This document shows positions 6,770 through 22,968 of a DNA stretch of 49,508 nt, one piece after another. Positions within the stretch are counted from its first letter, which is position 1. Each line of letters begins with the position of its first letter. The position numbers and the translations under genes are program-made. Under the pieces are notes generated by a model. The model saw only the letters and a program-made list of their open reading frames with translations, was not told where the DNA came from and searched no databases. The DNA comes from Pseudomonadota bacterium (GTDB lineage: Bacteria; Pseudomonadota; Gammaproteobacteria; Xanthomonadales; Rhodanobacteraceae): positions 1 through 49,508 of the forward strand of contig JAJXWU010000068.1 of NCBI GenBank assembly GCA_021781425.1. Reading direction: 5' to 3'.

Positions 6770-7716
6770 TGAGCAAAATTCTTATCATCGCCGAACATCT
6801 GAACGGCAAGCTCAATTCCACCACCGCACGCTGCGTGACCTGCGCGCGCGAGTTGGAGCCGGACAGCATCGACGTCCTGGTGCTTGCCGACGCCGCGCAG
6901 ACCATCGCGGCAGAAACCGCGAAAATCGACGGCGTGTCGAAAGTGCTGTCGGTATCGAACACCGCCAATGCGCATGCGCTCGCCGCCGTCTACGCGCCGC
7001 AGATCGCCGCCGTGGCAAAAAATGGCTACACGCACGTGCTTGCGCCATCGACCACGTTCGGCAAGGACCTCGCCCCGCGCGTGGCGGCTCTGCTCGGAGT
7101 TGCCCAGGTCAGCGACATCATGAAAGTGGTCGATGCGCACACCTTGCAGCGTCCGATCTACGCTGGCAACGCCATCATCACCGTGCAGGCCCCGGCCGAC
7201 CAGACCCTGGTCGGCACTGTGCGCACGGCGTCGTATCCGGCCGCCGCGAACGGTACGAATGTCGCGCCGGTCGAAGCAGTGAACGTTAATGTCGAATTGC
7301 CCACCCACACGCGCTTTGTGGAACTCACCCAGGCCAAGAGCGATCGTCCCGACTTGCAGAGCGCGCGCCGCGTCGTGTCGGGTGGCCGCGGCGTGGGTTC
7401 GAAGGAGAATTTCGCCGTCATCTTCCAGTTCGCCGACAAGCTCGGCGCGGCGGTCGGCGCCTCGCGCGCGGCAGTCGATGCCGGTTATGTGCCGAGCGAT
7501 CTGCAGGTTGGCCAGACCGGCAAGATCATCGCACCGGAACTGTACGTGGCGATCGGTATTTCCGGCGCGATCCAGCACCTGACCGGCATCAAGGACGCCG
7601 GCACCATCGTCGCCATCAACAAGGACGGCGAGGCGCCGATCTTCGAGGTCGCAGACATCGGCCTCGTCGGTGATCTGTTCAAATTGATTCCGGAGCTGGA
7701 GCAGGCTTTGGGCTAA
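6769..7716 (+). CDS. etfA: Electron transfer flavoprotein subunit alpha
   Basis: A 315-residue ETF alpha subunit. The N-terminal half is the usual divergent domain ([13 protein letters not shown]). The C-terminal FAD domain is clear: [17 protein letters not shown], then [45 protein letters not shown], and [21 protein letters not shown]-contacting residues of the family are in place. The start is the ATG at 6769, overlapping the EtfB stop as TGATG; an in-frame GTG one codon upstream is less likely. Thirty bases after its stop begins the acetoacetyl-CoA synthetase, consistent with one operon for fatty acid and ketone metabolism. Confidence 0.96.
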
Positions 7717-7746: not shown

Positions 7747-9711
<1,965 letters not shown>

Positions 9712-9718
9712 ATCGAAT

Positions 9719-11149
9719 ATGGCAAAGGACGAAGCATCCAGCATCCCGCTTTGCATCGATCTGGACGGCACTCTGATCCGCTCGGATCTGCTAATCGAAT
9801 CGGCACTGGCACTGCTGAAAACAAATCCGTTGTTCCTTTTCCTGTTTCCGCTTTGGCTACTGCGCGGGCGTGCGAACCTCAAACGCGAGATCGCCCGACG
9901 CGTGCAACTGGATGCAGTCACACTGCCGTACGATGCGCGTGTGTTGACGCTGCTGCGTGCGCAAAACCTCCGCCCACGCGTGTTATGCACCGCTTCCGAT
10001 CATTTGTTGGCCGATGCTGTGGCCCAACATCTCGGCCTGTTTGATGAAGTGATCGCGAGCGATGGCACGCGGAACCTGTCGGGGGATATCAAGGCCGCAA
10101 TGCTGGTGCAACGATACGGCGAACGCGGTTTCGATTACGCCGGCAACGAGACAAAGGACCTCGCAATCTGGAAATGGGCGCGTCTCGCGTTCGTCGTCAA
10201 CGGCGACCGCAGATTGGACAGTCGCGTGAAAAAGCAGTGCGATGTGGCGCAGGTGATGCCTCGTGAACGCCCAGGCCTGCACGCGTGGTTGGGTGCATTG
10301 CGTCCGCACCAATGGTTGAAGAACACTTTGGTGTTTGTGCCACCTCTGGCCGCGCACCTCGTGATGCAGCCAGCAGTCGTTGCACGCAGTCTTGCCGCAT
10401 TCGCGATCTTCAGCATCTGCGCCTCAGGCGTTTACCTGCTCAATGACCTGTTCGATCTGGCTTCTGATCGTCGTCATCCGCGCAAGCGCAAACGACCATT
10501 CGCTTCCGGACAGTTGCCACTGACGACGGGAATGGTCACCACGTTGTTGTTTACTTTTGTCGCTTTTGCCGCTGCATTTGCGCTGGCGCCGCGTTTTGTC
10601 CTGGTCTTGCTCGGATATTTTCTGTTGACTCTCGCCTATTCGCTGTATCTGAAACAAATAGCGATGCTGGACGTGATCGTGCTGGCGGCGTTGTACACAA
10701 CCCGAATCATTGCGGGTGCCGTTGTCATCGGCATTGGCTTGTCATTCTGGCTGCTGGCGTTTTCCATGTTCCTATTCCTGAGTTTGGCAATCCTCAAGCG
10801 CTACACCGAACTGGGCGTGCAGCGTGCGGCCGGCAATGCCCATGCGCATGGCCGTGGATACGCAACGAGCGATTACGAGCTGCTGGCCGCACTTGGCGGG
10901 GCCAGCGGGTACCTCAGCGTGCTGGTGCTGGCGCTCTACATCAACAGCACGGCCAGCGAATTGCTCTACCGACATCCACAGGTGTTGTGGTTGTTGTGTC
11001 CGTTGTTGCTGTACTGGGTCAGCCGCGCGTGGATCGTTGCCCACCGTGGCACGATGCACGACGATCCGATCGTATTTGCGGTGACTGACCGCGTTAGCCT
11101 GACCGTCCTCGTGCTGGGCGCTGTAGTGGCGCTTGTGGCGATTCGGTGA
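9719..11149 (+). CDS. HAD phosphatase-UbiA prenyltransferase fusion (decaprenyl-phosphate phosphoribosyltransferase-like)
   Basis: A 476-residue two-domain protein. Residues 10-180 form a HAD domain: motif I CIDLDGTLIRSD (Asp14, Asp16), motif II CTASDH, and motif IV YAGNETKDLAIW, with Asn in place of the usual first Asp. Residues 190-476 form a polytopic UbiA domain: RPHQWLKNTLVFVPPLAA, the prenyl-diphosphate motif NDLFDLASDRRHPRKRKRP (Asn242, Asp246, Asp250) and YSLYLKQIAMLDVIVLAA. HPxK after the Asp-rich motif resembles Rv3806c-type enzymes, which put 5-phosphoribose on decaprenyl phosphate. A fused HAD could remove the 5-phosphate (inference). It is directly followed by overlapping DprE1- and DprE2-like genes, which supports this role over quinone biosynthesis. 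Confidence 0.82.
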   Translation: MAKDEASSIPLCIDLDGTLIRSDLLIESALALLKTNPLFLFLFPLWLLRGRANLKREIARRVQLDAVTLPYDARVLTLLRAQNLRPRVLCTASDHLLADAVAQHLGLFDEVIASDGTRNLSGDIKAAMLVQRYGERGFDYAGNETKDLAIWKWARLAFVVNGDRRLDSRVKKQCDVAQVMPRERPGLHAWLGALRPHQWLKNTLVFVPPLAAHLVMQPAVVARSLAAFAIFSICASGVYLLNDLFDLASDRRHPRKRKRPFASGQLPLTTGMVTTLLFTFVAFAAAFALAPRFVLVLLGYFLLTLAYSLYLKQIAMLDVIVLAALYTTRIIAGAVVIGIGLSFWLLAFSMFLFLSLAILKRYTELGVQRAAGNAHAHGRGYATSDYELLAALGGASGYLSVLVLALYINSTASELLYRHPQVLWLLCPLLLYWVSRAWIVAHRGTMHDDPIVFAVTDRVSLTVLVLGAVVALVAIR

Positions 11150-12441
11150 GCGACGGACTGCAATCCTGGGGGCGCTATCCGCGCGCGGAACAACGTGCGT
11201 TGCGCCTGCACAACCGCTTCGCATCGTTACCTGAATTTCAAGGATGTGCCCTGCCGCGCGGCAACGGCCGCAGCTATGGGGACGTATGTCTCAACGACGG
11301 CGGCACCCTGCTCGATGCACGCGGGTTGGATCGCTTCATTTCGTTCGAGGCAACGGCCGGCACACTGCGCGTGGAGGCCGGGGTACTGCTCGGCACGATT
11401 CTCGAGGTGTTCGTTCCACGTGGTTGGTTCCTGCCGGTAGCGCCCGGGACGCGTTTTGTCACCGTCGGCGGCGCCATCGCCAACGATGTGCACGGCAAGA
11501 ATCATCATGTCGTCGGCAGCTTCGGTTGTCATGTGCGCGCATTCGAATTGCTGCAGGGCGACGGTTCACGCCGAATCTGTTCACGCGAAAAAAATGTCGA
11601 ATGGTTTGCGGCGACAATCGGAGGATTGGGCCTCACCGGATTGATCACCTGGGTGGAGCTGCAACTCAAATCTGTGTCGAGCGCATGGTTCGAAAGCGAA
11701 ACCATCCGCTACAACCAGCTCGACGATTTCTTCGAACTTTCGGCGCAATCTGAACGCGCATTCAACTACACCGTTGCGTGGGTCGATTGCACTGCGCGCG
11801 GCCCGGCGCTAGGCCGCGGTGTTTTCACGCGTGGCAATCACGCCGCGGCAGAGACCCGAGTGCTGCACGAACGCCACTGGCGCATGCCGTTCACTCCACC
11901 GTTTTCGCTGGTGAATGCGCCGACGTTGCATGCATTCAACGCTCTGCATTTCTACCGAGCACCTGCAACGACGCGTCGAACACGTGAACATTATCGATCC
12001 TGGCTGTTCCCTCTGGACGCCATCCACAACTGGAATCGGATCTACGGACCGCGTGGCTTCCTGCAGTATCAGTGTGTGCTGCCGCCGCAGGCGGCACGCG
12101 AAGGCATGCGCGAGTTGCTTGAGCGTATCGCCGCAAGCGGTCAGGGCTCGTTCCTCATCGTCCTGAAACAGTTTGGCATGAACGTCTCACCGGGCCTACT
12201 ATCCTTCCCGCGTGCGGGAACCACACTGGCGGTGGATTTCGCCTATCGCGGGCAAGTTACCCTGGAATTGCTCGATCAGCTCGACGCTACCGTGACAGCC
12301 GCCGGCGGCGCGGTGTATCCGGCCAAGGATGCGCGCATGTCCGGGGAAAACTTTCGAAGATTCTTCCCAGCGTGGCAGCAGTTCTCGGCTTTCATCGACC
12401 CGGCATTCTCGTCGGGATTCTGGCGGCGAATGATGCAATGA
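11146..12441 (+). CDS. dprE1: DprE1-like FAD-binding polyprenylphosphoryl-beta-D-ribose 2'-oxidase
   Basis: A 431-residue VAO-type flavoprotein. The FAD domain has RGNGRSYGDVCLN (38-50) and the long match PVAPGTRFVTVGGAIANDVH continuing to GKNHHVVGSFG, including the histidine that carries or contacts FAD in mycobacterial DprE1. The substrate domain keeps FLIVLKQFG (Lys341) and VYPAKDARM (Lys394), aligning with the active-site lysines. Mycobacterial DprE1 has WNICVDF with the reactive Cys387; here the segment is TLAVDF, with Ala362 (codon 12229-12231). It oxidises the 2'-hydroxyl of polyprenyl-phospho-ribose, the first half of epimerisation to arabinose. Start is GTG, overlapping the HAD-UbiA stop (GTGA). 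Confidence 0.85.
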   Translation: MSDGLQSWGRYPRAEQRALRLHNRFASLPEFQGCALPRGNGRSYGDVCLNDGGTLLDARGLDRFISFEATAGTLRVEAGVLLGTILEVFVPRGWFLPVAPGTRFVTVGGAIANDVHGKNHHVVGSFGCHVRAFELLQGDGSRRICSREKNVEWFAATIGGLGLTGLITWVELQLKSVSSAWFESETIRYNQLDDFFELSAQSERAFNYTVAWVDCTARGPALGRGVFTRGNHAAAETRVLHERHWRMPFTPPFSLVNAPTLHAFNALHFYRAPATTRRTREHYRSWLFPLDAIHNWNRIYGPRGFLQYQCVLPPQAAREGMRELLERIAASGQGSFLIVLKQFGMNVSPGLLSFPRAGTTLAVDFAYRGQVTLELLDQLDATVTAAGGAVYPAKDARMSGENFRRFFPAWQQFSAFIDPAFSSGFWRRMMQ

Positions 12442-13181
12442 GCGGAACCAAGGTCCTGATTATCGGCGCTACATCGGCGATTGCGGAAGCAGTCGCACGC
12501 GTGTACGCACGCCGCGGTGATGCGTTATATCTGCTTGCGCGCGACGCACGACGTGCACAAGCTATTGCGGACGATCTGTGCGTGCGCGGCGCCAAGTCCG
12601 CATATGGAGCTGTGCTCGACGTCGTCGACTTTGCCGCGCACCTGGATGCAATCGACCACGCCTGCTCGGCCCTCGGGGGTATCGATATCGCCCTGATCGC
12701 GCACGGCACTCTGCCCGATCAAGCGCGCTGCGAACGCGACATCGAATATGCATTGCGTGAATTCACGATCAACGGCACCGCGACGATTGCGCTAGCCACG
12801 CTGGTCGCACAGAAGATCGAGGCGCAAGGCTCTGGAACGCTTGCCGTGATCTCGTCCGTCGCCGGCGACCGTGGCCGGGCCAGCAATTATCTTTACGGAT
12901 CAGCGAAGGCTGCCGTGAACGCGTACATAAGTGGCTTGCGCCAGCGCCTCAATGCCTGCGGTGTCAACGTGCTGATGATCAAACCCGGCTTCGTCGATAC
13001 GCCGATGACGGCATCGTTCAAGAAGGGTGTGCTCTGGGCGAAACCCAATACGGTCGCGTGCGGCATTGTGCGCGCCATCGACAAGCGCCGCAGTGTGGTC
13101 TACCTGCCGTGGTTCTGGCGGCCAATCATGTTAGTGATCCGCTGCATTCCCGAAAATCTGTTCCGGCGGATCAAGCTCTGA
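12438..13181 (+). CDS. dprE2: DprE2-like short-chain reductase (2'-keto polyprenylphosphoryl pentose reductase)
   Basis: A 247-residue short-chain dehydrogenase/reductase. It shows the NAD(P) motif IIGATSAIAEAVARVYARRG (Gly10 onward), FTINGTATIALA with the structural Asn, and VISSVAGDRGR. The catalytic pair is YLYGSAKAAVNAYISGL (Tyr153, Lys157), followed by MIKPGFVDTPMTASF. A hydrophobic C-terminal tail (YLPWFWRPIMLVIRCIPENLF) would favour membrane association, as in DprE2. Paired with the preceding oxidase, it would reduce the 2-keto intermediate to polyprenyl-phospho-arabinose. The ATG at 12438 overlaps the oxidase stop (ATGA). SDRs are promiscuous by sequence, so the specific role rests mainly on gene order. 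Confidence 0.8.
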   Translation: MSGTKVLIIGATSAIAEAVARVYARRGDALYLLARDARRAQAIADDLCVRGAKSAYGAVLDVVDFAAHLDAIDHACSALGGIDIALIAHGTLPDQARCERDIEYALREFTINGTATIALATLVAQKIEAQGSGTLAVISSVAGDRGRASNYLYGSAKAAVNAYISGLRQRLNACGVNVLMIKPGFVDTPMTASFKKGVLWAKPNTVACGIVRAIDKRRSVVYLPWFWRPIMLVIRCIPENLFRRIKL

Positions 13182-13186
13182 TCGCG

Positions 13187-14131
13187 ATGACCGACAAGAA
13201 CGCAAAAATCGTGCTTACCGGCGCCGCGGGTCTCGTCGGCCAGAACCTCATGATCGAACTGAAGGCGCAGGGCTACACGAATCTCTTCGCCATCGACAAG
13301 CACGAATACAATCTCCATGTCCTGCGCAAGTTGCATCCTGACGTCCATGTGGTCCCCGCGGACCTAGCCGAGCACGGCGCTTGGGAAGGCGAATTCATGA
13401 ATGCGGCCTGCGTGATCCAGTTGCACGCGCAGATCACGGGCAAGCATTCCAAGCTCTTTGAGCGCAACAACATCGATGCGACCCGCAACGTCCTCGACGC
13501 AATGCGCAAGTACACAGTGCCCTATCTTGTGCACATAAGTTCATCGGTGGTGAACTCAGTCGCCAACGACGATTACACAAACACCAAGAGGGTGCAGGAA
13601 AAGCTCGTTGTTGACAGCGGCATTCAGCATTGCATCTTGCGTCCGACACTGATGTTCGGCTGGTTTGATCCCAAGCACCTGGGTTGGTTGGCGCGCTTCA
13701 TGGAAAAAACACCGATATTTCCGATTCCCGGCAACGGCCGCTATATGCGCCAGCCGCTGTACGAGCGCGACTTCTGTCGCTGCATTGCGGCATGCCTTGT
13801 GCGTGAACCGAATGGCGAGGTGTACGACATCGTCGGCGATACACGCATCGACTACGTGGACATCATTCGCACCATCAAACGCGTGAAGAAGCTGCGCACC
13901 CGGATTGTGCAAATTCCGTACAGGCTGTTTCGGTTCCTGCTGCAATCCTACGCCGTGTTCAGTCACAAGCCGCCATTTACAGCGGATCAATTGCAGGCTC
14001 TAACGGCCGGCGATGACTTCCTAGGCGTGGACACTCAAGCTGTGTTCGGGGTGAAACAGACGGCATTCGAAGATGCGGTTCACGAAAGTTATTGCGATTC
14101 GCGCTATAGCCGTATCGTGCTGAAACGTTGA
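13187..14131 (+). CDS. NAD-dependent epimerase/dehydratase family protein
   Basis: A 314-residue extended-SDR protein. The N-terminus has IVLTGAAGLVGQNLMIELKA with the GxxGxxG nucleotide-binding motif. The catalytic pair is DDYTNTKRVQEKLVV (YxxxK) after the serine-rich HISSSVVNSV. Residues such as LRPTLMFGWFDPKHLGWLAR and QPLYERDFCRCIAACL resemble the substrate domain of nucleoside-diphosphate-sugar epimerases and the complex-I NDUFA9-like subgroup. It starts 5 bases after the DprE2-like stop and precedes an FAD oxidoreductase, so it belongs to the glycan operon. The substrate cannot be read from sequence; modification of the lipid-linked or nucleotide sugar is a guess. Confidence 0.75.
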   Translation: MTDKNAKIVLTGAAGLVGQNLMIELKAQGYTNLFAIDKHEYNLHVLRKLHPDVHVVPADLAEHGAWEGEFMNAACVIQLHAQITGKHSKLFERNNIDATRNVLDAMRKYTVPYLVHISSSVVNSVANDDYTNTKRVQEKLVVDSGIQHCILRPTLMFGWFDPKHLGWLARFMEKTPIFPIPGNGRYMRQPLYERDFCRCIAACLVREPNGEVYDIVGDTRIDYVDIIRTIKRVKKLRTRIVQIPYRLFRFLLQSYAVFSHKPPFTADQLQALTAGDDFLGVDTQAVFGVKQTAFEDAVHESYCDSRYSRIVLKR

Positions 14132-14138
14132 TTGCACC

Positions 14139-15452
14139 GTGCCTGTACGCAACCGTAAATTCGTGGTACTCGGCGCCGGCCCGATGGGTCTGATGGCGGC
14201 GATCGAGCTGCTCAAAGCTGGACATGCGGTCGATTTGTACGAGCGCGACGACCGCATCGGCGGCATGTCGGCGACATTCGATTTCGACGGGCTGGAAATC
14301 GAGCGCTACTACCATTTCATCTGCAAGACTGACTTCGCCCTGTTTCGCCTGCTTGATGCGTTGAATCTTTCGCATACTCTGCGATGGGTCGATACGAAAA
14401 TGGGCTTTTTCTACAACGGCCGGCTGTACCAATGGGGCACGCCGGCTGCGCTTCTTGCGTTTGATGGCCTTGGCCTGATCGGCAAGCTGCGCTACGGCAT
14501 TCACGCGATGTACGCCAAAAGCATCAAGGATTGGCGGCCTTATGACAAATTGCTGGCGACGCAATGGATCCGCAAGTGGGTCGGCAAGCGCACTTACGCA
14601 GTGTTGTGGAAGAGCCTGTTCGAGCTGAAGCTCTTCGAGTACTCTGATCAAATCTCTGCAGCATGGATCGGCACCCGCATTCAGCGCGTGGCCAAATCGC
14701 GGCGTAATCTGATGCAGGAAAGCCTTGGTTATCTCGCCGGCGGCTCGGCTACGTTACTGCACGCGATGGAGAAATTCATCGTCAGGCGTGGCGGCCACAT
14801 TCACCTCAAATGCGGTATCGACCGCGTCATCGTCCGTGACGGCCGCGTCGCCGGCATCGTGGTGGGCGGGGACGAAATGCCGTGCGATGCAGTGATATCG
14901 ACCGCACCAATCCAGTACGTGCCACGCCTCGTGCCCGATCTGCCGCGCGATTTCGCCGCGCGCATCGACGCGATCAAGAATATCCCGGTCGCCTGCGTGA
15001 TTCTGAAGCTCACCCAGCCGCTTAGCGGGAACTTCTGGACGAACATCAACGATCCGGCGATGGCGATCCCAGGCGTGATCGAGTACTCGAACCTCAACCC
15101 CGAAAGCGGAGAGCACATCCTCTACGCGCCGTTCTACATGCCGAAAACACATACGAAGTGGATGCTGCCGAACGAGAAACTTATCGACGAGGTGATCGGC
15201 TACCTGCCTAGGCTCAATCCCGCATTTCGCCCGGATTGGGTGCTGGCCCGGCATTGCCACCGCTACGATTTCGCACAGACCATTTGTCCGCCCGGCTTCT
15301 ATGACATGCTGCCGCCAATGAAGACGCCGATCCAAGGCTTGTGCATGGCCGACACCGCGTACTACTACCCCGAGGATCGCTCGATCAACGAGAGCGTGAA
15401 CGTCGCGCGCGAACTGGTTCGCGTCGCCCTGCAGGAACTCTCCCATGACTGA
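14139..15452 (+). CDS. FAD-dependent NAD(P)-binding oxidoreductase (protoporphyrinogen oxidase/amine oxidase-like)
   Basis: A 437-residue flavoprotein with an N-terminal dinucleotide fold (FVVLGAGPMGLMAAIELLKAG). The substrate-proximal motif YERDDRIGGMSATF is shared with amine oxidases, protoporphyrinogen oxidases and UDP-galactopyranose mutases. The C-terminal FAD site is IQGLCMADTAYYYPEDRSIN. Members of this type are often found in polysaccharide and lipid-linked sugar clusters, but most have no assigned reaction. It starts with GTG at 14139, seven bases after the epimerase stop, and overlaps the methyltransferase start by eight bases. A mutase-like role on a lipid-linked or nucleotide sugar is possible but unproven. 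Confidence 0.72.
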   Translation: MPVRNRKFVVLGAGPMGLMAAIELLKAGHAVDLYERDDRIGGMSATFDFDGLEIERYYHFICKTDFALFRLLDALNLSHTLRWVDTKMGFFYNGRLYQWGTPAALLAFDGLGLIGKLRYGIHAMYAKSIKDWRPYDKLLATQWIRKWVGKRTYAVLWKSLFELKLFEYSDQISAAWIGTRIQRVAKSRRNLMQESLGYLAGGSATLLHAMEKFIVRRGGHIHLKCGIDRVIVRDGRVAGIVVGGDEMPCDAVISTAPIQYVPRLVPDLPRDFAARIDAIKNIPVACVILKLTQPLSGNFWTNINDPAMAIPGVIEYSNLNPESGEHILYAPFYMPKTHTKWMLPNEKLIDEVIGYLPRLNPAFRPDWVLARHCHRYDFAQTICPPGFYDMLPPMKTPIQGLCMADTAYYYPEDRSINESVNVARELVRVALQELSHD

Positions 15453-16119
15453 AAGCCGCGATCAACTCAGAACTCTTTACCGCCACCGCTTCCCCGAACA
15501 TGAGCTCAAGCGCAAGCACGCGATCTGGAAGGCGTTATGCCGACGTTTTTTCAGTCGGTATGTCAACCCTACTGACACCGTTGTCGACATTGGTGCCGGC
15601 TACTGCGAATTCATCAACAACATCGCCGCGGGTCGCAAGATCGCGGTGGATCTCAATCCTGAGGTTAAGCGCTTCGCCGCGCCGGGCGTGCAGGTGATCA
15701 ACGAATCTTGCGCTGCGATCAGCGAGCTCTCGGCAGGCACGGCGAACGTGGTATTCATGAGCAACTTCCTCGAACACTTGCCGGACAAGCAGATGGTGCT
15801 CGATACCTTCCGCGAGGCCCATCGCATCCTCGCGACCGACGGCCGCATCATTGTGCTGCAACCGAATATCCGGTTTCTATACGACGAATACTGGGATTTT
15901 TTCGATCATCGCACACCGTTGAGCGACCGCAGTCTGGTCGAAGGCCTGCAGCTAGCAGGCTTTGTGCCGGAACTCGTGATTCCGCGCTTCCTGCCCTATA
16001 CGACAAAGAGCCGTTTGCCCCAGGCACCATGGCTTGTCGATCTGTACTTGCGCTTCCCGCCGGCATGGCGGCTGCTCGGCAAACAAGCATTGGTGGTGGC
16101 GCGCAAGAAGTCTTCCTGA
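15445..16119 (+). CDS. Class I SAM-dependent methyltransferase
   Basis: A 224-residue methyltransferase of the Methyltransf_11/23 type. It shows the SAM motif TDTVVDIGAGYCEFINNIAA, the acidic loop IAVDLNPEVKRF, and NVVFMSNFLEHLPDKQMVL typical of motif IV. Then comes RILATDGRIIVLQPNIRFLY. The histidine-rich segment FFDHRTPLSDRSLVEGLQLAGF is seen in methyltransferases from glycan gene clusters. Its ATG lies inside the end of the FAD oxidoreductase gene, so the two are translationally coupled. It probably methylates a sugar or lipid intermediate of this pathway; the target is unknown. Confidence 0.82.
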   Translation: MTESRDQLRTLYRHRFPEHELKRKHAIWKALCRRFFSRYVNPTDTVVDIGAGYCEFINNIAAGRKIAVDLNPEVKRFAAPGVQVINESCAAISELSAGTANVVFMSNFLEHLPDKQMVLDTFREAHRILATDGRIIVLQPNIRFLYDEYWDFFDHRTPLSDRSLVEGLQLAGFVPELVIPRFLPYTTKSRLPQAPWLVDLYLRFPPAWRLLGKQALVVARKKSS

Positions 16120-16134
16120 CCCGTTAGTCTTTGC

Positions 16135-16542
16135 GTGATCTCTTCGAACATATCAGAACGCTTCATTCGATTTCTGCTCGTCAGCGGCATAGCCGCGGCG
16201 GCAAATATCGGCTCGCGTATCGTGTTTTCGTTTTGGCTGCCGTACGTGCCGTCAATCGTGCTTGCATTCTGCGTGGGCCTCTGCAGTGCATTCGTGCTAA
16301 ACCGTCTGTTCGTATTTCGCGAGACCGTCAATCGCCTTTATCTTCAGGTGTTCTGGTTCACAATGGTCAACTTCGCTGCAGTGCTGCAAACTCTGGCCGT
16401 TAGTTTGCTGCTGGCACGGCTGGCATTTCCAGCGTTTGATTTCCGCTGGCACGCCGACACCGTTGCGCACGTTTTCGGCGTGACAGCACCGATATTGACC
16501 AGCTTCATTGGCCACAAACGTCTTTCGTTCCGGAGCGTCTGA
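16135..16542 (+). CDS. GtrA family membrane protein (putative polyprenyl-phospho-sugar flippase)
   Basis: A 135-residue protein with four predicted transmembrane segments. It opens with the GtrA pattern RFIRFLLVSGIAAAANIGSRI and contains AFCVGLCSAFVLNRLFVF, the conserved NRxFVF element. GtrA proteins are linked to membrane translocation of polyprenyl-phosphate sugars; mycobacterial Rv3789, next to dprE1, is in the family. Here it is followed without any gap by a GT-C-like membrane protein (stop 16540-16542, next ATG at 16543). The start is a GTG at 16135. Its position between the DprE1/DprE2 pair and a candidate transferase supports flipping of the lipid-linked pentose, by inference. Confidence 0.85.
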   Translation: MISSNISERFIRFLLVSGIAAAANIGSRIVFSFWLPYVPSIVLAFCVGLCSAFVLNRLFVFRETVNRLYLQVFWFTMVNFAAVLQTLAVSLLLARLAFPAFDFRWHADTVAHVFGVTAPILTSFIGHKRLSFRSV

Positions 16543-18471
16543 ATGCGAAGCATGCCTGCGTTTCGTCCATCGCAAACCGCATGCTCTCCGCCGCGTAGGC
16601 AATGGCCCTTGTTCGCGCTGATTTTCGTTCTCGTCATGCTGGTGCGCATGGTCTATGTGTCATTGTTCGCGGCGTCCATCCCGTTCTGGGATCAGTGGGA
16701 CGAACTGGATTTTCAAGTTCTGCCATGGCTGCAAGGATCATGGCACTACCTACAGTTGTTCCAAGCTCATTTGGAGCACCGCGTCGCAATGACTCGCCTT
16801 ATCACGATGCTGTTGCTCGCCATAAACGAAGGGGTATTTGACAACTTGGTCGAGGCATACGCGAATGCATTCATTTACGCAGGCCTCTGGGTAGCTGTGT
16901 TTGCGCTACTCACTTACGGCGAATACAGCCGATCACGCCGATGGCTACTCCTACTGGCACTCGTCGCTCTTAGCTCGCTGCCATTCGACTGGGAAAACGC
17001 TCTGATCGGATTCCAGAATTGCTTCTATCTGATGGAACTTGCAGCGGTTGCAATCATTGCCGTCGCAACGTATTGCAAACCCATACTTACGACCGTCATT
17101 GGATTGACTTTGTTGGCTGGTGCGGGCTTGTTCACCATGGCGCCTGGTTTACTAGCAGCTCCAGCGGTAATTCTCGTGATGGGTTTTCGCACACGGCGGG
17201 ACGCGCTGCCACAAAAATTCATCGTGCTGGCTTTCATCGCAATGTCGGCTACAACGCTAGCCGGATTGTTGCTTTTGCACTACGCAACTTCGCCTCCAGC
17301 GTACGGCGCAAACGGAGTCTTCGAATTCGCCCGTGCCATGCTTATCGCATTGATGTGGCCACTGCAGCCTTTCAATGCACGTTTCCACCTTTTCTATTTG
17401 CTGTTCGCAATAGTCGTTTGGGCTCCCATTACAATTTGGATGTGGCGCTTTGCTCGAATCGGACGGGCTGAGACTGGTGAGATCTTCGCAGCAGGACTTT
17501 GCGGCTGGGTCTTGCTGGAATTGATGGCTATAGCGTACGCGCGCGGCCATTATATGGTCGAGCTCTCATCTAGATATACGGAAATCCCCGCATTGGGCCT
17601 CACAGCCAATTTCTGGCTCGCGCTGAAACTGACTACACGCCTCGACTCGAGACGACTTTTTGCCGCATCAGTTTCGATTGTCTTTGGCATGGCCTTGGTA
17701 GGTTGGGCATTTTGGTCGCGATTTCCCGCAGATCGTGCAGCGTTGCTGCAACGCAGTCAATTCAGCGGAATCGAGACGGCCAACGTGCGGCTTTATCTGA
17801 CTGGCGCCCCGATGCCAACATTACCAGCCAATTCACTGGAGCTACCGTATCCAAGCGAAGATCGATTGCAACATCTGCTCGACATGCCGCAAATGCGCGC
17901 ATTGTTCCCCCCTGCCCTGCTATTGCCGCCCGAATCCAACAAGCGCGCCCCGCTTTCCGCGCTGGCCGCCGGGACACAGCGATTCTTGCAACATTGGCTT
18001 GCATGGCCCAATGCAAAAATCGCCCCCCCCACCTTGAATGCGCCAGCACGTGCAGTCTCCGGTACATCAAGCGCCTTCAGGGCCTATTCCGGTTCGATCC
18101 CTGATCACCCAGCGAACGCGCAGTGTGCACTTGATCTAATCAACGGCCAGCCAGCAAGAGCAGTGGGGGCGCTAGCTCACGGCGTCGTGGCCTTGTTTCA
18201 AGGCTGGGCGGGCAACGGTCATGGCGAAGCTCTGAAGCAACCGATCCTTGTTCTCAAGTCCCTTCGACAATCGTATGCAGCGCCGCTCACAACCGGTGGT
18301 GAGCGTCTGGATGTGGCGCAGGCGTTGAAAAGCGACGGTATGGCAGAGTCGGGATACAATCAGTCGGCTCTATTGGGTCCCGTCGCTTCGGGGACGTATT
18401 CCTTGCTCGTGATCGAAGCCGCCGATCCGACGACAACATGCAACCTTCACCAAACCTTGACCGTGAAATAG
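16543..18471 (+). CDS. Polytopic membrane protein, candidate GT-C glycosyltransferase
   Basis: A 642-residue protein not assignable to a named family by eye. Residues 20-390 hold about ten hydrophobic segments. Residues 400-642 are mostly soluble and would be periplasmic. The first loop after TM1 contains PFWDQWDELDFQVLPWL (Asp50, Asp53, Glu54), matching the position of the acidic metal- or lipid-phosphate-binding motif of GT-C transferases. EHRVAMTRL and SSRYTEIPALG also recall that class. It abuts the GtrA gene. Base composition looks less GC-rich than neighbouring genes, suggesting a variable or acquired segment. A role transferring the lipid-linked sugar in the periplasm is inferred from topology and context. 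Confidence 0.6.
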   Translation: MRSMPAFRPSQTACSPPRRQWPLFALIFVLVMLVRMVYVSLFAASIPFWDQWDELDFQVLPWLQGSWHYLQLFQAHLEHRVAMTRLITMLLLAINEGVFDNLVEAYANAFIYAGLWVAVFALLTYGEYSRSRRWLLLLALVALSSLPFDWENALIGFQNCFYLMELAAVAIIAVATYCKPILTTVIGLTLLAGAGLFTMAPGLLAAPAVILVMGFRTRRDALPQKFIVLAFIAMSATTLAGLLLLHYATSPPAYGANGVFEFARAMLIALMWPLQPFNARFHLFYLLFAIVVWAPITIWMWRFARIGRAETGEIFAAGLCGWVLLELMAIAYARGHYMVELSSRYTEIPALGLTANFWLALKLTTRLDSRRLFAASVSIVFGMALVGWAFWSRFPADRAALLQRSQFSGIETANVRLYLTGAPMPTLPANSLELPYPSEDRLQHLLDMPQMRALFPPALLLPPESNKRAPLSALAAGTQRFLQHWLAWPNAKIAPPTLNAPARAVSGTSSAFRAYSGSIPDHPANAQCALDLINGQPARAVGALAHGVVALFQGWAGNGHGEALKQPILVLKSLRQSYAAPLTTGGERLDVAQALKSDGMAESGYNQSALLGPVASGTYSLLVIEAADPTTTCNLHQTLTVK

Positions 18472-18693
18472 TCCGAACCGCGTTCCCGAAGAGCCACTCC
18501 GTATCTCCGCTTGCAGCGGGCAATGACTCGCCCTTGCCTCTCAAACTTGCTCATATGCCATTGGCCTGCTGATGATCGGTCGTTAGGACGGCAGCTTCCG
18601 CAACGGATTCGAGTCGGTGCCCGTGAGCTGTCCGTGCGACATTTCCAATCCGGTATCATTGCGTTCGATCTTCACTTCAGCGAAGAACAACCT
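18472..18693. other. Non-coding gap of 222 bp before the sulfotransferase/GT2 gene
   Basis: No convincing gene or strong promoter was seen. The frame of the downstream gene is open through it from TTG 18511, but the encoded residues do not look like a protein domain and the sulfotransferase homology begins only after 18780. A new promoter may lie here because it is the largest gap in the glycan cluster. TATCAT near 18655 is only a weak -10 candidate. Confidence 0.35.
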
Positions 18694-21600
18694 GTGATCG
18701 ACGACAAGCAAGCGACCAATCCATCGGAAGAATCGCACCCCGATTCGGACGCTACTGCCAATCCCAGCGACAGCGGCAAATTCGCTAACGGGATTTTGGT
18801 TCTTGGCATGCACCGCTCCGGCACATCGGCCGTCGCCGGTGTATTGCGGTTGCTGGGTGTCTATGTCGGCATCGCCGACGAATTGCTGTTGCCGCACGAA
18901 CTCGACAATCCGACCGGTTACTGGGAGCGTACCGAACTCGTGGTAGAACACGATCGGTTTCTGGGGTTAGTAGGACACTCGTGGAACCGCATCGCCGGCT
19001 ACGATGCAACAAGGCTCGATGCCAGCCTGTGTGCGTCTTTTCAGGATCGCCTGCGCGAAGTCATCCGAAAGATTCGGGTGCAGAACGGTCCGTGGCTGGT
19101 GAAAGATCCGCGGCTGAGCTTGTTGTTGCCGCAATGGCTGCCATTGCTGGATCACCCCACCTGCGTTGTGGTCGTGCGCGATCCTCGCGAAATCATCCGT
19201 TCCCTGCGCGACACCCATCGAGGAGTTTTGCCAAGTCCGTTCTTGCTCGCTCTCTGGGAAAAATACATGCGTACGCTGCTCGACAATCTGTCGGACCGGC
19301 GTGCGCTCTTCGTGGCGTACGCAGATCTGATGGACGATCCGCCGGCGCAATGCGATCGCCTGCTGCGCGGGCTGCGCGAACTCGGGATCGACGGCCTGCA
19401 CGCAGTCGATCCAGCCGACTTGTCGGATTTTCTCGACCCCGGATTGCGCCGCAGTGAACCTTTGCCGCATCTGCGCTTGGCGCCGGCGCAGCAGTCGTTG
19501 CACGACTGGCTGCGTGAACAAAGCCGCGCGCCGAGTGCCGTTGCGGTGTCCGGATTTCCGCAAGCCGTGGCGCCGGACGATTTGCTGACCGAGTTCGAGG
19601 CCGCGTTTGCGGGACGGATCGAGCAAGGCCGCATGGAGGCGGCCGAGACGCTCAGATCCCTGCAGGCCGAACTCGACTCGATGCGCCATGCGCGCAACGT
19701 AGCGGCAGCTCGGGTCGACCAGACAGAGGCACGCGTACAGGCGCTCGCGGACGAACTCTCCGCCGCCCGGACCGATCGCGATCGAACCGCATCCCTGCTC
19801 ACGCGCGCCGAAGATCAAATCGCAGTCGCTGTTGAACGTGTGCAAACGCTTGGTGTGGAACTTGACGAATCCCGCCGCTTGCACGACGTGGCGCAAAGGG
19901 AACTCGCCACGGTGCGCCACCAGCGCAACATCGCGGCCACGAGACAACGGCAAGCTGAGCTCCAATCAGCGGAATGGCGCGCTGGATTCTATGCGGTGCG
20001 CACATCATGGTCGTGGCGGCTTACAGCCCCATTGCGCTGGATCGGCGCCCATTGCGTTCCACGGATATCCGGTGCGTTCGAGCAGAAGCTGCACATGGCT
20101 TGGTACGCTGTTCCCGGACTGAGCATCGCCCGCAAGCGCGCAGTTATCCTGTGGCTGCACCGTCACGTCCCCTGCATCACCGGCAAGACCCTGTCCTATC
20201 GGTTGACTCGTCAGGCGCAGCGGCTGCAGACGCTGCGCGATGACCTGTGTGCCGGATTGGAACCGCGCATGGATGCGGGACGCGCCGCACAGCTCGTCGC
20301 CGCGATGGCGACAAGGCCACGCATCTCCCTCATCATGCCGGTGTATGACGTCAAGCCATGCTGGCTGGTCGCCGCGGTCGAATCGGTTCGAGACCAGTTC
20401 TACCCGGATTGGGAGCTTTGCATCGTCGACGACGGTAGTACGGATGTGGCCACTCGGCAGGCGCTGAGCGACTTGACGTGCGACAGTGACGTGCGCATAA
20501 AAATCCAGCGCCTGCCCCGGAACACAGGCATCGCCACCGCATCGAATGCGGCGATCGCGCTGGCAACCGGCGATTACATCGGCTTGCTCGATAACGACGA
20601 TGAACTGACGCGCGACGCGTTGTTGGAAACGGCGCTGGCAATCAACGCGAATAGTCCTGATATTGTTTATTCGGACGAAGACAAGCTCGAAACGGATGGC
20701 ACGCTAGTAGAACCGCACTTCAAACCCGATTTTTCGCCCGAGTACTTCTTCTCGGTCAACTATTTGTGTCACTTCACCGTGATCCGCGGAGAATTGCTGC
20801 GGAAGATTGGCGGATTCCGCAATGGTTTCGACGGTGCACAGGATTTCGACCTCCTGCTTCGCGCCACGGAAAACGGCGAGCGCGTCGTCCACATTCCGAA
20901 GGTGCTGTACCACTGGCGCAAGTCGGAAACGTCGACCGCAAGCAGCAGCGCGGCCAAACCTGCGGCCTCCGCAGCGGGGCTGCGGGCGCTCGCCGAATCG
21001 CTCAGCAGGCGCGGCATCGACGCCACGGCCGAACACGGGCCTTATCCGACCACATACCGCGTGCGCCGCGCGATCGCCGGGCAGCCACTGGTCAGCATCC
21101 TTCTCCCATTCCGCGACAAGCCGAATTTGCTGGCTACGTGCGTGAAGTCAATCCTGGACAAGACCGATTATCCGCGGTTCGAGATTCTGGGTATCGACAA
21201 TGGGAGCATCGAGCCAGCCACGCATGTCCTGATGCATGAATTGGCGGCGATGGACGCGCGCGTGAGATTCATCCGGCACGATGTACCGTTCAATTTTTCC
21301 GCAATCAACAATTTCGCCGCCCGCCAGGCGCAAGGTGAGCATCTGCTGTTTCTTAACAACGATACCGAAGTCATCAGCCCGTGCTGGATGCGAGCGATGC
21401 TTGAACATTCGCAGCGTCCGGAAGTTGGTGTGGTCGGTGCCAAGCTGCTGTATCCGGACGATCGCATCCAGCACGGCGGCGTCATCATCGGAATTGGCGG
21501 CGTGGCGGGTCATGCGCACTTGCTGCAACCGGGCGATCACCCGGGTTATTTTGCGCGCGCCCAACTGCCGCAGGAACTGAGCGCAGTAACCTTTGCCTGC

Positions 21601-21939
21601 GCGATGAGCCGACGTTCCACCTTCGCGATTCTCGGCGGGTTGAACGAAACCGACCTGACCATTGCATTCAACGACATCGATTATTGTCTGCGCGCGCGCG
21701 AGGTCGGACTGCTGATCCTCTATACACCGTACGCCGTGCTTTACCACCACGAATCGCGCACGCGTGGCTACGAAGACAATCCCGAAAAGCAGTCGCGGTT
21801 CGCGCGCGAAACGGCCTACATGCAACAACGTCATGCCGGGATCCTGCAACGCGGGGATCCCTACTACAATCCAAACCTGCGTCTGGATACGCACGATTTC
21901 AGTCCGTACCCCAGCCATAGCGACGCGCTATCGCGCTGA
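18694..21939 (+). CDS. Sulfotransferase-coiled-coil-tandem GT2 glycosyltransferase fusion
   Basis: A roughly 1081-residue multidomain protein. Residues 30-280 resemble a PAPS sulfotransferase, with the phosphosulfate-loop motif GILVLGMHRSGTSAVAGVL and VVVVRDPREIIRSLRDT. Residues about 300-430 are Glu/Arg/Ala-rich and likely coiled coil. Then SWSWRLTAPLRWIG precedes a first GT2 domain (RISLIMPVYDV at about 540, LLDNDDELT at about 630). A second GT2 domain follows (PLVSILLPFRDK at about 797, FLNNDTEVI at about 887, with QHGGVIIGIGGVAGH). It would both sulfate and extend a surface glycan. The start is uncertain: GTG 18694 is chosen because upstream residues are not domain-like; ATG 18523 and TTG 18511 are in frame. 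Confidence 0.8.
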   Translation: MIDDKQATNPSEESHPDSDATANPSDSGKFANGILVLGMHRSGTSAVAGVLRLLGVYVGIADELLLPHELDNPTGYWERTELVVEHDRFLGLVGHSWNRIAGYDATRLDASLCASFQDRLREVIRKIRVQNGPWLVKDPRLSLLLPQWLPLLDHPTCVVVVRDPREIIRSLRDTHRGVLPSPFLLALWEKYMRTLLDNLSDRRALFVAYADLMDDPPAQCDRLLRGLRELGIDGLHAVDPADLSDFLDPGLRRSEPLPHLRLAPAQQSLHDWLREQSRAPSAVAVSGFPQAVAPDDLLTEFEAAFAGRIEQGRMEAAETLRSLQAELDSMRHARNVAAARVDQTEARVQALADELSAARTDRDRTASLLTRAEDQIAVAVERVQTLGVELDESRRLHDVAQRELATVRHQRNIAATRQRQAELQSAEWRAGFYAVRTSWSWRLTAPLRWIGAHCVPRISGAFEQKLHMAWYAVPGLSIARKRAVILWLHRHVPCITGKTLSYRLTRQAQRLQTLRDDLCAGLEPRMDAGRAAQLVAAMATRPRISLIMPVYDVKPCWLVAAVESVRDQFYPDWELCIVDDGSTDVATRQALSDLTCDSDVRIKIQRLPRNTGIATASNAAIALATGDYIGLLDNDDELTRDALLETALAINANSPDIVYSDEDKLETDGTLVEPHFKPDFSPEYFFSVNYLCHFTVIRGELLRKIGGFRNGFDGAQDFDLLLRATENGERVVHIPKVLYHWRKSETSTASSSAAKPAASAAGLRALAESLSRRGIDATAEHGPYPTTYRVRRAIAGQPLVSILLPFRDKPNLLATCVKSILDKTDYPRFEILGIDNGSIEPATHVLMHELAAMDARVRFIRHDVPFNFSAINNFAARQAQGEHLLFLNNDTEVISPCWMRAMLEHSQRPEVGVVGAKLLYPDDRIQHGGVIIGIGGVAGHAHLLQPGDHPGYFARAQLPQELSAVTFACAMSRRSTFAILGGLNETDLTIAFNDIDYCLRAREVGLLILYTPYAVLYHHESRTRGYEDNPEKQSRFARETAYMQQRHAGILQRGDPYYNPNLRLDTHDFSPYPSHSDALSR

Positions 21940-21954
21940 TCCACCCCCGACACG

Positions 21955-22968
21955 ATGCTCGCCTTGCTGATTCTGAATCACGGTACGGCTACTGCCACCG
22001 TGCGCTGCCTTGCAGCCCTGTTGGAGGAAATTCCGACCGGCACCCGCATCTTCGCCATGGACAACGGCTCCCCCGGAGACGACGCGAAGCGGCTTGCGGA
22101 TTTTGCTGCGCAACATCCGGATCGAATCCGCTTCAGCGCCTGCCTGCAAAATCTTGGCTTCGCCGGCGGCATGAACCGACTGATCGGCGATGCACTGGCC
22201 GATCCGGCAGTCGATCAAATCCTGCTGCTCAACAGCGATACGCTGCCACAACCCGGTTTCATCGCGGCGATGCAGGCGAAGCTCGATCCGCAATCGCGCG
22301 CGGACATGGTCGCGGCACGCATGCTCGATGCAAGCAGCGGCGAAGTGGACAGCCTCGGTATCGCGCTTTACCGCGCTACGCTGGCTTCCAACCGCAAGCG
22401 CGAGGAGGAAATCCTGCTCGGACCCTCGGGCGGCTGCGCGTTGCTGACGCGGCGGCTGCTGGAGGATTTGCATGCCAGCCACGGCGAATGGTTCGACGAG
22501 GAATTCTTCTGCTATGCCGAGGACACCGATCTGGCTCTGCGCGCGCGCTGGCTGGGTTATCGCGCGGCGTATGCGCCCGACGCAGTAGTGCATCACGCCA
22601 GGTCGCTGTCTTCCGGCGGTCCGGAAAACGATTTTGTGCTGTATCACGGCATCCGCAATTCGCTGTGGTGGCTGGTCAAGGACGCGCCCGCGGGCTGGCT
22701 GCTGCGCTCATTGCCGCGTTTCATTGCGCTGCATGGCGGGATCGTGCTGCGCCATCTGCGTCGCGGCCGTGTGCGGGTACTGTGGCGTCTGTATCGCGAT
22801 GCGATCCGCGGCATTCCGGCGATGCGGCGCAAACGCGCGATCATCGGCCAGACTCGCCGCGTTGCTGCGGCGGAATTCGCAAGCTGGGTGGACCCGCACT
22901 TCTACGAACGCGGCTACGTGCGCCGTGCGTGGCGCGAATTGTGGCGACCGAAGTCGGAGAAAACCTGA
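21955..22968 (+). CDS. Family 2 glycosyltransferase
   Basis: A 337-residue GT-A fold glycosyltransferase, cytoplasmic with possible membrane contact. It begins LALLILNHGTATATVRCL. It has FAMDNGSPGDD, NLGFAGGMNRLIGDAL and the divalent-metal motif ILLLNSDTLPQPGF. The acceptor-side region is FFCYAEDTDLALRARWLGY followed by AVVHHARSLSS, the pattern of rhamnosyltransferase-like GT2 enzymes. It lies 15 bases after the sulfotransferase/GT2 gene and ends the cluster, just before a REP element. Sugar specificity is not predictable. Codon use looks like the surrounding core genome. Confidence 0.88.
   Translation: MLALLILNHGTATATVRCLAALLEEIPTGTRIFAMDNGSPGDDAKRLADFAAQHPDRIRFSACLQNLGFAGGMNRLIGDALADPAVDQILLLNSDTLPQPGFIAAMQAKLDPQSRADMVAARMLDASSGEVDSLGIALYRATLASNRKREEEILLGPSGGCALLTRRLLEDLHASHGEWFDEEFFCYAEDTDLALRARWLGYRAAYAPDAVVHHARSLSSGGPENDFVLYHGIRNSLWWLVKDAPAGWLLRSLPRFIALHGGIVLRHLRRGRVRVLWRLYRDAIRGIPAMRRKRAIIGQTRRVAAAEFASWVDPHFYERGYVRRAWRELWRPKSEKT

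What the first reader, a model, noticed from the sequence alone, without database searches (positions are those of the whole stretch)
9719..18471. Mycobacterial-style lipid-linked pentose (decaprenyl-phospho-arabinose-like) pathway in a Gram-negative cluster
One co-directional run encodes a UbiA phosphoribosyltransferase-like protein, a DprE1-like oxidase, a DprE2-like reductase, a GtrA protein and a GT-C-like membrane protein. In mycobacteria the corresponding parts are Rv3806c and Rv3789 (GtrA)-Rv3790 (DprE1)-Rv3791 (DprE2)-Rv3792 (GT-C arabinosyltransferase). The first three genes overlap by four bases each. The inference is a polyprenyl-phospho-arabinofuranose donor used on a surface glycan; a related arabinosylation gene set is known in Azorhizobium nodulation (noe genes). 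The added epimerase, FAD oxidoreductase and methyltransferase suggest the pentose is modified further.
Basis: partly seen in the sequence, partly recalled or inferred. Interest (0 to 1): 0.85.

Follow-up and report, generated by a model that had tools for sequence, protein, structure and literature searches.

The report
Lipid-linked arabinose cassette in LPS locus
A soil bacterium carries, in the place where its relatives keep their outer-surface sugar genes, the same kind of genes that tuberculosis bacteria use to make a lipid-carried arabinose, plus two extra enzymes that travel with them across proteobacteria and may remodel that sugar further in a way that is not yet worked out.

Summary
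Window 9719-18471 encodes a HAD phosphatase-UbiA fusion, DprE1-like oxidase, DprE2-like reductase, SDR "epi", FAD enzyme, methyltransferase, GtrA and a GT-C-fold protein. UbiA, oxidase and reductase match the tuberculosis enzymes first among solved structures (5e-31, 2e-72, 8e-36) and keep the catalytic residues checked. The core very probably makes polyprenyl-phosphate-arabinofuranose. This is not new for Gram-negatives: Kelly et al. 2024 proved the fused enzyme in Citrobacter and name DprE1/E2 versions and Xanthomonas examples. The less expected part is the epi-FAD pair. Of 369 gammaproteobacterial genomes 13 have epi, and all 13 have FAD and DprE1; 55 of the other 356 have DprE1. UbiA-DprE1-DprE2-epi-FAD-GtrA keeps its order in alpha-, beta- and gammaproteobacteria. 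I read this as a second, uncharacterised conversion of the lipid-linked pentose. Flippase, acceptor and every reaction in this organism are inferred; the final sugar is unknown. New variant of a known kind.

The parts
9719..11149 (+). Bifunctional HAD phosphatase (about residues 1-185) fused to UbiA polyprenyl-phosphate phosphoribosyltransferase (PRP-PPPRS type)
   Evidence: NF006088 654 bits; PDB 8j8j DPPR synthase 5e-31; D14, D16, N242, D243, D246, D250, R361, E364 invariant in the 14 rows of A2, D14/D16 in the 21 rows of A6; HAD model pLDDT 95, fold matches phosphoserine-phosphatase-type HADs
11146..12441 (+). DprE1-like FAD oxidase (C2 oxidation of lipid-linked ribofuranose)
   Evidence: PDB DprE1 2e-72; NF053785 362 bits, under its 500 cut-off; Tyr60, His132, Lys418 of DprE1 kept (Y44, H116, K394), Cys387 is Ala362 (counted by hand on the alignment)
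12438..13181 (+). DprE2-like SDR reductase
   Evidence: PDB DprE2 8e-36; PRK07102 322 bits (cut-off 267), DprE2 model 192 (cut-off 250)
13187..14131 (+). 'epi': extended SDR epimerase/dehydratase family protein
   Evidence: PF01370; TGAAGLVG and Y130xxxK134; 64-81% identity over the 80 loci kept
14139..15452 (+). FAD-dependent oxidoreductase, PRK07233 family, partner of epi
   Evidence: NF005560 517 bits (cut-off 252); in 13 of 13 epi genomes of the class set
15445..16119 (+). Class I SAM methyltransferase, optional member
   Evidence: PF13489/PF08241; found in 28 of 80 epi loci
16135..16542 (+). GtrA-family small membrane protein, presumed flippase for the lipid-linked sugar
   Evidence: PF04138 53 bits; found in 70 of 80 epi loci
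16543..18471 (+). GT-C-fold membrane glycosyltransferase with C-terminal beta-sandwich, variable slot of the locus
   Evidence: AlphaFold pLDDT 83.4, pTM 0.84; top structural row AftB 9dlh Z 15.8, rmsd 5.1, 378 aligned, tied with other GT-C enzymes; invariant D50, W52, H76, H79, R344, Y345 in 26 sequences
18511..21939 (+). Sulfotransferase-like domain plus two GT2 domains; probably also part of the surface-polysaccharide locus
   Evidence: PF13469, PF00535 x2; some homologous stretch in 21 of 80 epi loci, 11 of 80 if at least 30% of the protein is asked
21955..22968 (+). GT2 glycosyltransferase, last gene before metB
   Evidence: PF00535/PF13641

Best explanation
This is the donor-making and transfer module of a surface-glycan locus. 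[quoted passage not shown] its fused HAD domain removes the 5-phosphate; DprE1 oxidises and DprE2 re-reduces C2, giving polyprenyl-phosphate-D-arabinofuranose; epi and the FAD enzyme act as a second pair that converts this lipid-linked pentose further, and the methyltransferase, where present, methylates it; GtrA flips the lipid-sugar; the GT-C protein transfers it in the periplasm to an acceptor, most likely LPS O-antigen or core, because the module sits in the metB-etfA LPS locus. Shown here: homology, catalytic residues, predicted GT-C and HAD folds, gene order, co-occurrence. Inferred: every reaction in this organism, the lipid, the flipping, the acceptor. My separate estimates: UbiA-to-arabinose core 0.85; epi/FAD acting on the same lipid-sugar 0.6; LPS as acceptor 0.6.
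For: Best solved matches of UbiA, DprE1 and DprE2 are the mycobacterial DPA enzymes. The residues mutated in C. youngae ORF15 (D18; N247, D248, D251, D255; R366, E369) correspond to D14; N242, D243, D246, D250; R361, E364 here, all invariant in the 14-row alignment. HAD fold, GT-C fold. Coupling: 13 of 13 epi genomes have FAD and DprE1, 11 of 13 have UbiA at 1e-100, in 369 genomes (Fisher 1e-10 for epi-DprE1); 21 of 21 epi genomes among 148 relatives have the UbiA over cut-off. In the window's own genus (16 genomes) UbiA and DprE1 are present together in 7 and absent together in 9, with epi in 6 of the 7; the contig of the seventh (G005) ends inside DprE2. Order UbiA-DprE1-DprE2-epi-FAD-GtrA in 4 of 4 epi-bearing plasmid loci opened, out of 7 plasmid records with epi. 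LPS locus: etfBA upstream and metB/CBS downstream in the window; etfA or etfB in 43 of 80 epi loci; same gene set in the published Xoo BXO8/Xac 306 LPS locus. A published screen of biofilm-defective Xac mutants has insertions in nine genes of that locus, among them XAC3591, XAC3593, XAC3595 and XAC3596, by accession order the DprE2, epi, GtrA and neighbouring membrane-protein counterparts (my matching of tags to Patil's table).
Against: NCBIfam equivalog cut-offs for DprE1, DprE2 and decaprenyl-phosphate phosphoribosyltransferase are not reached. G057 (L048) has UbiA-epi-FAD-GtrA-GT-C with no DprE1/E2 in the locus and only a weaker DprE1 relative elsewhere (7.5e-50). Two of 13 class-set epi genomes (G217, G335) lack a UbiA at 1e-100; in both the contig ends where UbiA would lie, and G217 keeps a fragment. 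G150 has epi but no UbiA match. L079 has GtrA followed directly by metB with no GT-C in the locus; with a simple TM count 59 of 80 loci show a large multi-TM protein, so a linked transferase is not universal. Genomes are related, so the Fisher values overstate independence. A review reports the O-antigen of an Xac strain as a rhamnose polymer and lists no pentose in its LOS (PMC8042644 passage). The XAC3591 mutant is not among the seven mutants with altered LPS gels, although the authors elsewhere group it with EPS/LPS-impaired mutants. No wzm/wzt in the window's locus, unlike Xanthomonas. GT-C rests on a model; mostly helical models can reach Z near 14 without kinship (tool note). No chemistry of this organism is on record here.
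Confidence: 0.7

Rival explanations
1. The cassette stops at plain arabinofuranose; epi, FAD and the methyltransferase make a different sugar or a nucleotide sugar for the same glycan and are neighbours only because the glycan needs both.
For: Xanthomonad LPS loci mix genes for many sugars. Beggiatoa/Thiotrichaceae loci carry epi-FAD(-MT) apart from UbiA/DprE. The four class-set genomes with FAD but no epi have it beside a GT2, a nucleotidyltransferase, or (two of four) a different PF01370 epimerase; one of these two also has aminotransferase and acetyltransferase genes, as in nucleotide-sugar making.
Against: Separated loci still belong to genomes with the HAD-UbiA: 11 of 12 searched (10 of 11 of Beggiatoa/Thiotrichaceae type). 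All 13 epi genomes in the class set have DprE1. The order DprE2-epi-FAD-GtrA recurs in three proteobacterial classes.
Confidence: 0.25
2. The FAD enzyme acts on the polyprenyl chain (like desaturases of its superfamily) rather than on the sugar, tailoring the carrier lipid.
For: Weak family hits include isoprenoid-acting flavoenzymes (HpnE 74 bits, carotenoid desaturases 41-49 bits); Patil et al. list the Xac counterpart as 'phytoene desaturase'.
Against: These hits are far below cut-offs and superfamily-level; its constant partner is a sugar-type SDR (13 of 13).
Confidence: 0.1
3. The acceptor is not LPS but a protein (type IV pilin, as in P. paraeruginosa) or an exopolysaccharide.
For: D-Araf on pilin is documented in P. 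paraeruginosa (passages); the large membrane proteins of the loci vary; the Burkholderia plasmid copy lies beside an isonitrile synthase gene, not in an LPS locus.
Against: Location in the metB-etfA LPS locus; a C-terminal beta-sandwich on the GT-C, similar in layout to the carbohydrate-binding domain of C. youngae ORF12.
Confidence: 0.3

Closest known systems
Citrobacter youngae O1/O2 three-component pentofuranose system (ORF15/14/12, plus ORF13; Kelly et al. 2024, PMC11127046)
   Same: HAD phosphatase fused N-terminally to UbiA PRTase, same catalytic residues; GT-C with C-terminal beta domain; lipid-linked ribofuranose diversified by epimerases; DprE1/E2 named there for Araf systems.
   Different: MATE flippase there, GtrA here; single SDR epimerase there, DprE1/E2 plus epi/FAD (plus MT) here; GT136 membership could not be tested.
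Xanthomonad metB-etfA LPS locus, Xoo BXO8 / Xac 306 type (Patil et al. 2007, PMC2238763)
   Same: Same flanks and same set: prenyltransferase 481 aa, oxidoreductase 433, SDR 242, methyltransferase 223, epimerase 312, 'protoporphyrinogen oxidase' 430, GtrA 136, membrane proteins.
   Different: No wzm/wzt in the window; the window has acetoacetyl-CoA ligase next to the cluster and a sulfotransferase-GT2 gene; that paper assigned no arabinose pathway.
Mycobacterial DPA pathway Rv3806c-Rv3789-Rv3790-Rv3791 with GT-C arabinosyltransferases
   Same: PRTase, DprE1, DprE2, GtrA, GT-C fold.
   Different: Fused HAD instead of a separate Rv3807c phosphatase; extra epi, FAD, MT; NCBIfam equivalog cut-offs not reached; carrier presumed undecaprenyl, not decaprenyl.
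Azorhizobium noeCHO and P. paraeruginosa PSPA7_6245-6251
   Same: Arabinose-donor genes in Proteobacteria (passages only).
   Different: Acceptors are Nod factor and pilin; not compared by sequence here.

Membership tests
Three-component pentofuranose system (Kelly 2024) | Polyprenyl phosphoribose synthase with catalytic N/D motif | tested here: met
   N242 D243 D246 D250 invariant in A2; 8j8j match 5e-31
Three-component pentofuranose system (Kelly 2024) | Fused HAD phosphoribosyl-phosphatase domain with loop-I Asp | tested here: met
   D14/D16 invariant in 21 sequences, HAD fold Z up to 16.2; activity not tested
Three-component pentofuranose system (Kelly 2024) | MATE-family flippase in the cluster | tested here: not met
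   None of the 10 proteins scanned hits a MATE family; GtrA is present instead. Rest of the genome not searched for one
Three-component pentofuranose system (Kelly 2024) | GT-C transferase of family GT136 | not testable with these tools
   GT-C fold supported by a model; no ORF12 sequence at hand
Mycobacterial DPA pathway | DprE1 equivalog (NF053785 cut-off 500) | tested here: not met
   361.6 bits; closest solved relative is still DprE1, 2e-72
Mycobacterial DPA pathway | DprE2 equivalog (NF053786 cut-off 250) | tested here: not met
   191.7 bits; best PDB hit DprE2 8e-36
Mycobacterial DPA pathway | GtrA-family counterpart of Rv3789 | tested here: met
   PF04138 53 bits over cut-off 26; not compared with Rv3789 itself
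Mycobacterial DPA pathway | Final lipid-linked D-arabinofuranose | not testable with these tools
   needs lipid chemistry
Xanthomonad metB-etfA LPS locus | Position between etfA and metB | tested here: met
   etfB/etfA 6023-7716, metB-like 23033-24196 (498.6 bits, just under the cut-off 513 of its best model), CBS-like 24197-25567
Xanthomonad metB-etfA LPS locus | wzm/wzt O-antigen ABC exporter at the metB end | tested here: not met
   65 bases between 22968 and 23033; none among the 10 proteins scanned
Azorhizobium noe arabinosylation genes | Sequence relation to noeC/H/O | not tested
   literature passages only

The most novel reading that the evidence does not exclude
The six-gene cassette UbiA-DprE1-DprE2-epi-FAD-GtrA makes a lipid-linked pentofuranose that is not arabinose and is not yet known in any bacterial glycan, through two successive oxidoreductase pairs on one lipid-linked sugar (DprE1/DprE2, then FAD/epi). 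One candidate is D-lyxofuranose, which needs inversion at both C2 and C3 and which Kelly et al. [quoted passage not shown] a keto-, deoxy- or otherwise altered pentose is equally open. Epi scores no higher against the SDRs beside DprE-less UbiA genes than against dTDP-glucose dehydratases, so sequence does not pick the product.
Probability: 0.3. Interest if true: 0.75.

Novelty: new variant of a known kind. Interest (0 to 1): 0.5.

Why it matters
It links two published facts that the texts I could read do not link: the xanthomonad LPS-locus genes (2007) and the lipid-linked pentofuranose pathway (2024; its supplement, which may draw this locus, was not readable here). It proposes a function for a locus present in Xanthomonas, Stenotrophomonas, Lysobacter, Dyella, Rudaea and others, and singles out a conserved enzyme pair (epi, FAD) of unknown chemistry that follows DprE1 in three proteobacterial classes. 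If the pair makes a new pentofuranose it would open a new kind of surface sugar, testable in a type strain. It also shows a natural DprE1 relative without the cysteine that benzothiazinone drugs hit (recalled knowledge).

Tried and rejected
Epi as the ORF13-type Ribf-to-Xylf epimerase: SDRs next to DprE-less UbiA genes (L209, L231) score 31 and 34 bits against the epi profile and those of NGR234 22-24% identity, no better than dTDP-glucose dehydratase in the PDB (47 bits); not adopted, not excluded, since no true ORF13 sequence was at hand. GT136 membership of the GT-C: only likeness of conserved residues (an Asp after the first helix, an R-Y pair), no reference sequence; left open. Solved relatives of the GT-C profile by sequence: one chance-level hit, 0.35. 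Foldseek alone gave one GT-C chain at 0.001 or better (2.7e-4, human OST-B). Epi in the PDB at 1e-15: none. Rfam in the window: 0 matches at gathering scores. Promoter/terminator scan: promoter-like 2 against a shuffled mean of 4.3, terminator-like 18 against 13.6; uninformative. Literature search with the word lyxofuranose: 0 occurrences in the 15 papers listed. Search on six XAC locus tags: 4 papers, passages of all four seen; one gives insertion mutants of XAC3591, XAC3593, XAC3595 and XAC3596, none gives an enzyme activity for epi or FAD. My other searches asked for the pathway, the species or the LPS, not for the pair by name. Phage records: 1 partial UbiA match of 50,697. The independent-pairs test of epi against UbiA on the DprE1 tree was uninformative.

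Errors of mine and limits: two of 69 DprE1 rows (G294, G380) were read in a wrong frame; one search repeats the tree with both corrected and is the one cited; it holds only DprE1-bearing genomes, so it cannot itself test the coupling. The simple gene caller takes the longest starts and misses overlapped genes; homology tables are used for counts. In one search I looked at 40 of the 51 UbiA places; three of those left out (G193, G396, G491) have epi with DprE1.
Full report
WHAT IS THERE. Eight co-directional genes fill 9719-18471; two 4-base overlaps link UbiA, DprE1 and DprE2. The window belongs to a 2.65-Mb, 265-contig assembly. Its genus holds G007, whose contig of 2,253,357 bases has the length of NZ_KB899241.1, Rudaea cellulosilytica DSM 22992; so the organism is taken as a Rudaea-like Lysobacterales member, by that match of lengths.

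CORE PATHWAY. The first protein is a HAD-UbiA fusion: NF006088 654 bits; its UbiA half matches the M. tuberculosis decaprenyl-phosphate phosphoribosyltransferase 8j8j (5e-31; the next other enzyme is at 0.015). The N-terminal 185 residues, just under Pfam's HAD cut-off (26.8 against 27), fold confidently (pLDDT 95.4) as a HAD (Z 16.2 to 3fvv, of unknown function; 13-14 to phosphoserine phosphatases). In Citrobacter youngae ORF15 the same fusion was shown to make farnesyl-P-ribose from PRPP, and D18, N247, D248, D251, D255, R366 and E369 were tested (section read). With offsets of 4 and 5 these are D14, N242, D243, D246, D250, R361 and E364 here, all invariant in the 14-row alignment. The second protein matches DprE1 (2e-72; next family 4e-12), keeping Tyr60, His132 and Lys418 but with Ala for Cys387 (my count on the printed alignment). 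The third matches DprE2 (8e-36; next 3e-16). All three fall below NCBIfam's cut-offs for the mycobacterial equivalogs, so I call them relatives, not equivalogs.

TRANSFER. GtrA is over its Pfam cut-off. The 642-aa protein hits no family in Pfam or NCBIfam. Its 26-member alignment has invariant D50, W52, H76, H79, R344 and Y345; the model (pLDDT 83.4, pTM 0.84) has a multi-helix membrane part and a C-terminal beta-sandwich. Foldseek alone finds one chain at 0.001 or better (human OST-B, 2.7e-4). In the VIA-align second look the top rows are GT-C enzymes: AftB 9dlh Z 15.8 (rmsd 5.1, 378 aligned, 12% identity), PglB 15.7, AglB 15.6, Pmt4 15.3, EmbB 13.5, ArnT 12.2, AftA 11.6. Rows within 1 Z are tied and helical models can reach about 14 by arrangement alone (tool note), so this supports a GT-C fold, not arabinosyltransferase membership. 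A profile of this family hits proteins in 31 of 80 epi loci; by a simple TM count 59 of 80 loci hold some large multi-TM protein, in 18 sequence clusters. So the donor core is constant and the transferase slot varies or lies elsewhere.

EPI AND FAD. In the 19 epi loci epi is 71-81% identical to the window's, against 56-66% for UbiA and 57-74% for DprE1; the methyltransferase, where present, is about as conserved (69-84%). In the 80 loci FAD is found in 77, GtrA 70, DprE2 67, DprE1 66, UbiA 62, MT 28 (asking for 30% of each protein: 77, 70, 66, 65, 62, 28). In 148 relatives epi occurs in 21, every one of which has the UbiA over cut-off (32 of 148 do) and 20 of which have a DprE1 at better than 1e-90 (24 of 148 do; 32 at 1e-30); the exception, G057, has only a weaker DprE1 elsewhere. 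In 369 gammaproteobacterial genomes epi occurs in 13, FAD in 17, DprE1 (1e-60) in 68, UbiA (1e-100) in 48; all 13 epi genomes have FAD and DprE1 and 11 have UbiA (Fisher 8e-21, 1e-10, 4e-9; genomes are related, so these are not independent trials). The two without UbiA (G217, G335) have contigs that end where it would lie; G217 keeps a fragment. Among 14 control genomes the DprE1 model rings in Corynebacterium glutamicum alone, the UbiA model passes its cut-off in none, and the FAD model in two archaea. On the DprE1 tree of 69 rows (14 epi-positive) epi needs 8 changes, at least 4 forced by supported branches: it has come or gone several times among DprE1 lineages. Of 40 UbiA stretches opened (of 51 places), 22 show DprE1, 18 UbiA alone, and 3 epi-FAD, all 3 with DprE1. 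In plasmids 7 of 72,556 records carry epi at 1e-30; I opened four, in Burkholderia, Agrobacterium, Rhizobium and a Rhodobacteraceae strain, and all four have UbiA-DprE1-DprE2-epi-FAD-GtrA in that order (identities). The pair therefore looks like a fixed add-on to the DprE1/E2 pathway. What it does is not shown. Two enzyme pairs, each a flavoenzyme plus an SDR, acting one after the other on one lipid-linked sugar is my reading.

LOCUS. Upstream lie etfB/etfA and acetoacetyl-CoA ligase, downstream a metB-type gene and a cystathionine beta-synthase-type gene. Patil et al. 2007 (one section and passages read) place the xanthomonad LPS locus between metB and etfA and list, for Xoo BXO8 with Xac 306 counterparts, prenyltransferase 481 aa, oxidoreductase 433, SDR 242, methyltransferase 223 (no Xac counterpart), epimerase 312, 'protoporphyrinogen oxidase' 430, GtrA 136 and membrane proteins. 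The words arabinose, pentose, ribose and polyprenyl do not occur in that text. etfA or etfB lies in the stretch held for 43 of 80 epi loci. In a screen for biofilm-defective Xac mutants nine genes of this cluster were hit, XAC3591, XAC3593, XAC3595 and XAC3596 among them (PMC3130047, passages). By accession order these are the DprE2, epi, GtrA and neighbouring membrane-protein counterparts; Patil's running text once pairs XAC3591 with the oxidoreductase instead. Polar effects are possible. The XAC3591 mutant swam less, and its LPS gel was not listed as altered. Kelly et al. saw no gel change when the side-chain pentose changed from Xylf to Ribf, so the gel does not decide.

WHAT IS KNOWN. Kelly et al. 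2024 (abstract, three sections and passages read) already describe the fused enzyme, name DprE1/E2 homologues for Araf systems, and mention Xanthomonas examples with multiple candidate epimerases or GT-Cs whose significance 'warrants investigation'. Their supplementary figures were not readable here, so this very locus may be drawn there. None of the listings I saw showed an activity for the epi-FAD pair, within an open-access library and with queries on the pathway, the species and locus tags.

VERDICT.

Noticed in passing
L283 (pNGR234a) 7944-16009; L231 5170-10479: Another variant: HAD-UbiA beside SDRs, a GMC-family oxidoreductase and, in NGR234, an SMR transporter, with no DprE1/E2 seen in the stretch; a GMC flavoenzyme may take DprE1's place.
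   Followed up: partly
window 11146-12441, residue 362: The position of M. tuberculosis DprE1 Cys387, the covalent benzothiazinone site, is alanine (counted by hand).
   Followed up: no
L153 (JAHREJ010000003.1): A record titled Bacillus subtilis SK7B5 carries etfBA and the cassette at Lysobacterales-like identity; probably a mislabelled or contaminated assembly.
   Followed up: no
L081 and L082 (CP007444.1): The Dyella jiangningensis SBZ 3-12 record holds the cassette twice, near its two ends: a duplication, or redundant ends of the record.
   Followed up: no
L036 7977-15902: About 8 kb inserted between DprE1 and DprE2: DegT aminotransferase, GT2, FdtA/hexapeptide protein and large membrane proteins, as for a Fuc3NAc-type sugar.
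   Followed up: partly
L079 4230-5819: GtrA is followed directly by metB on the other strand; no GT-C gene in this Rudaea-like locus.
   Followed up: no
L282 (Burkholderia stagnalis plasmid): The whole cassette with methyltransferase lies beside an isonitrile synthase gene, suggesting use outside LPS.
   Followed up: no
window 30767-31425 (-): PIN-domain gene with an overlapping small upstream gene: a VapBC-like toxin-antitoxin pair (PIN confirmed; the partner has no Pfam hit).
   Followed up: partly
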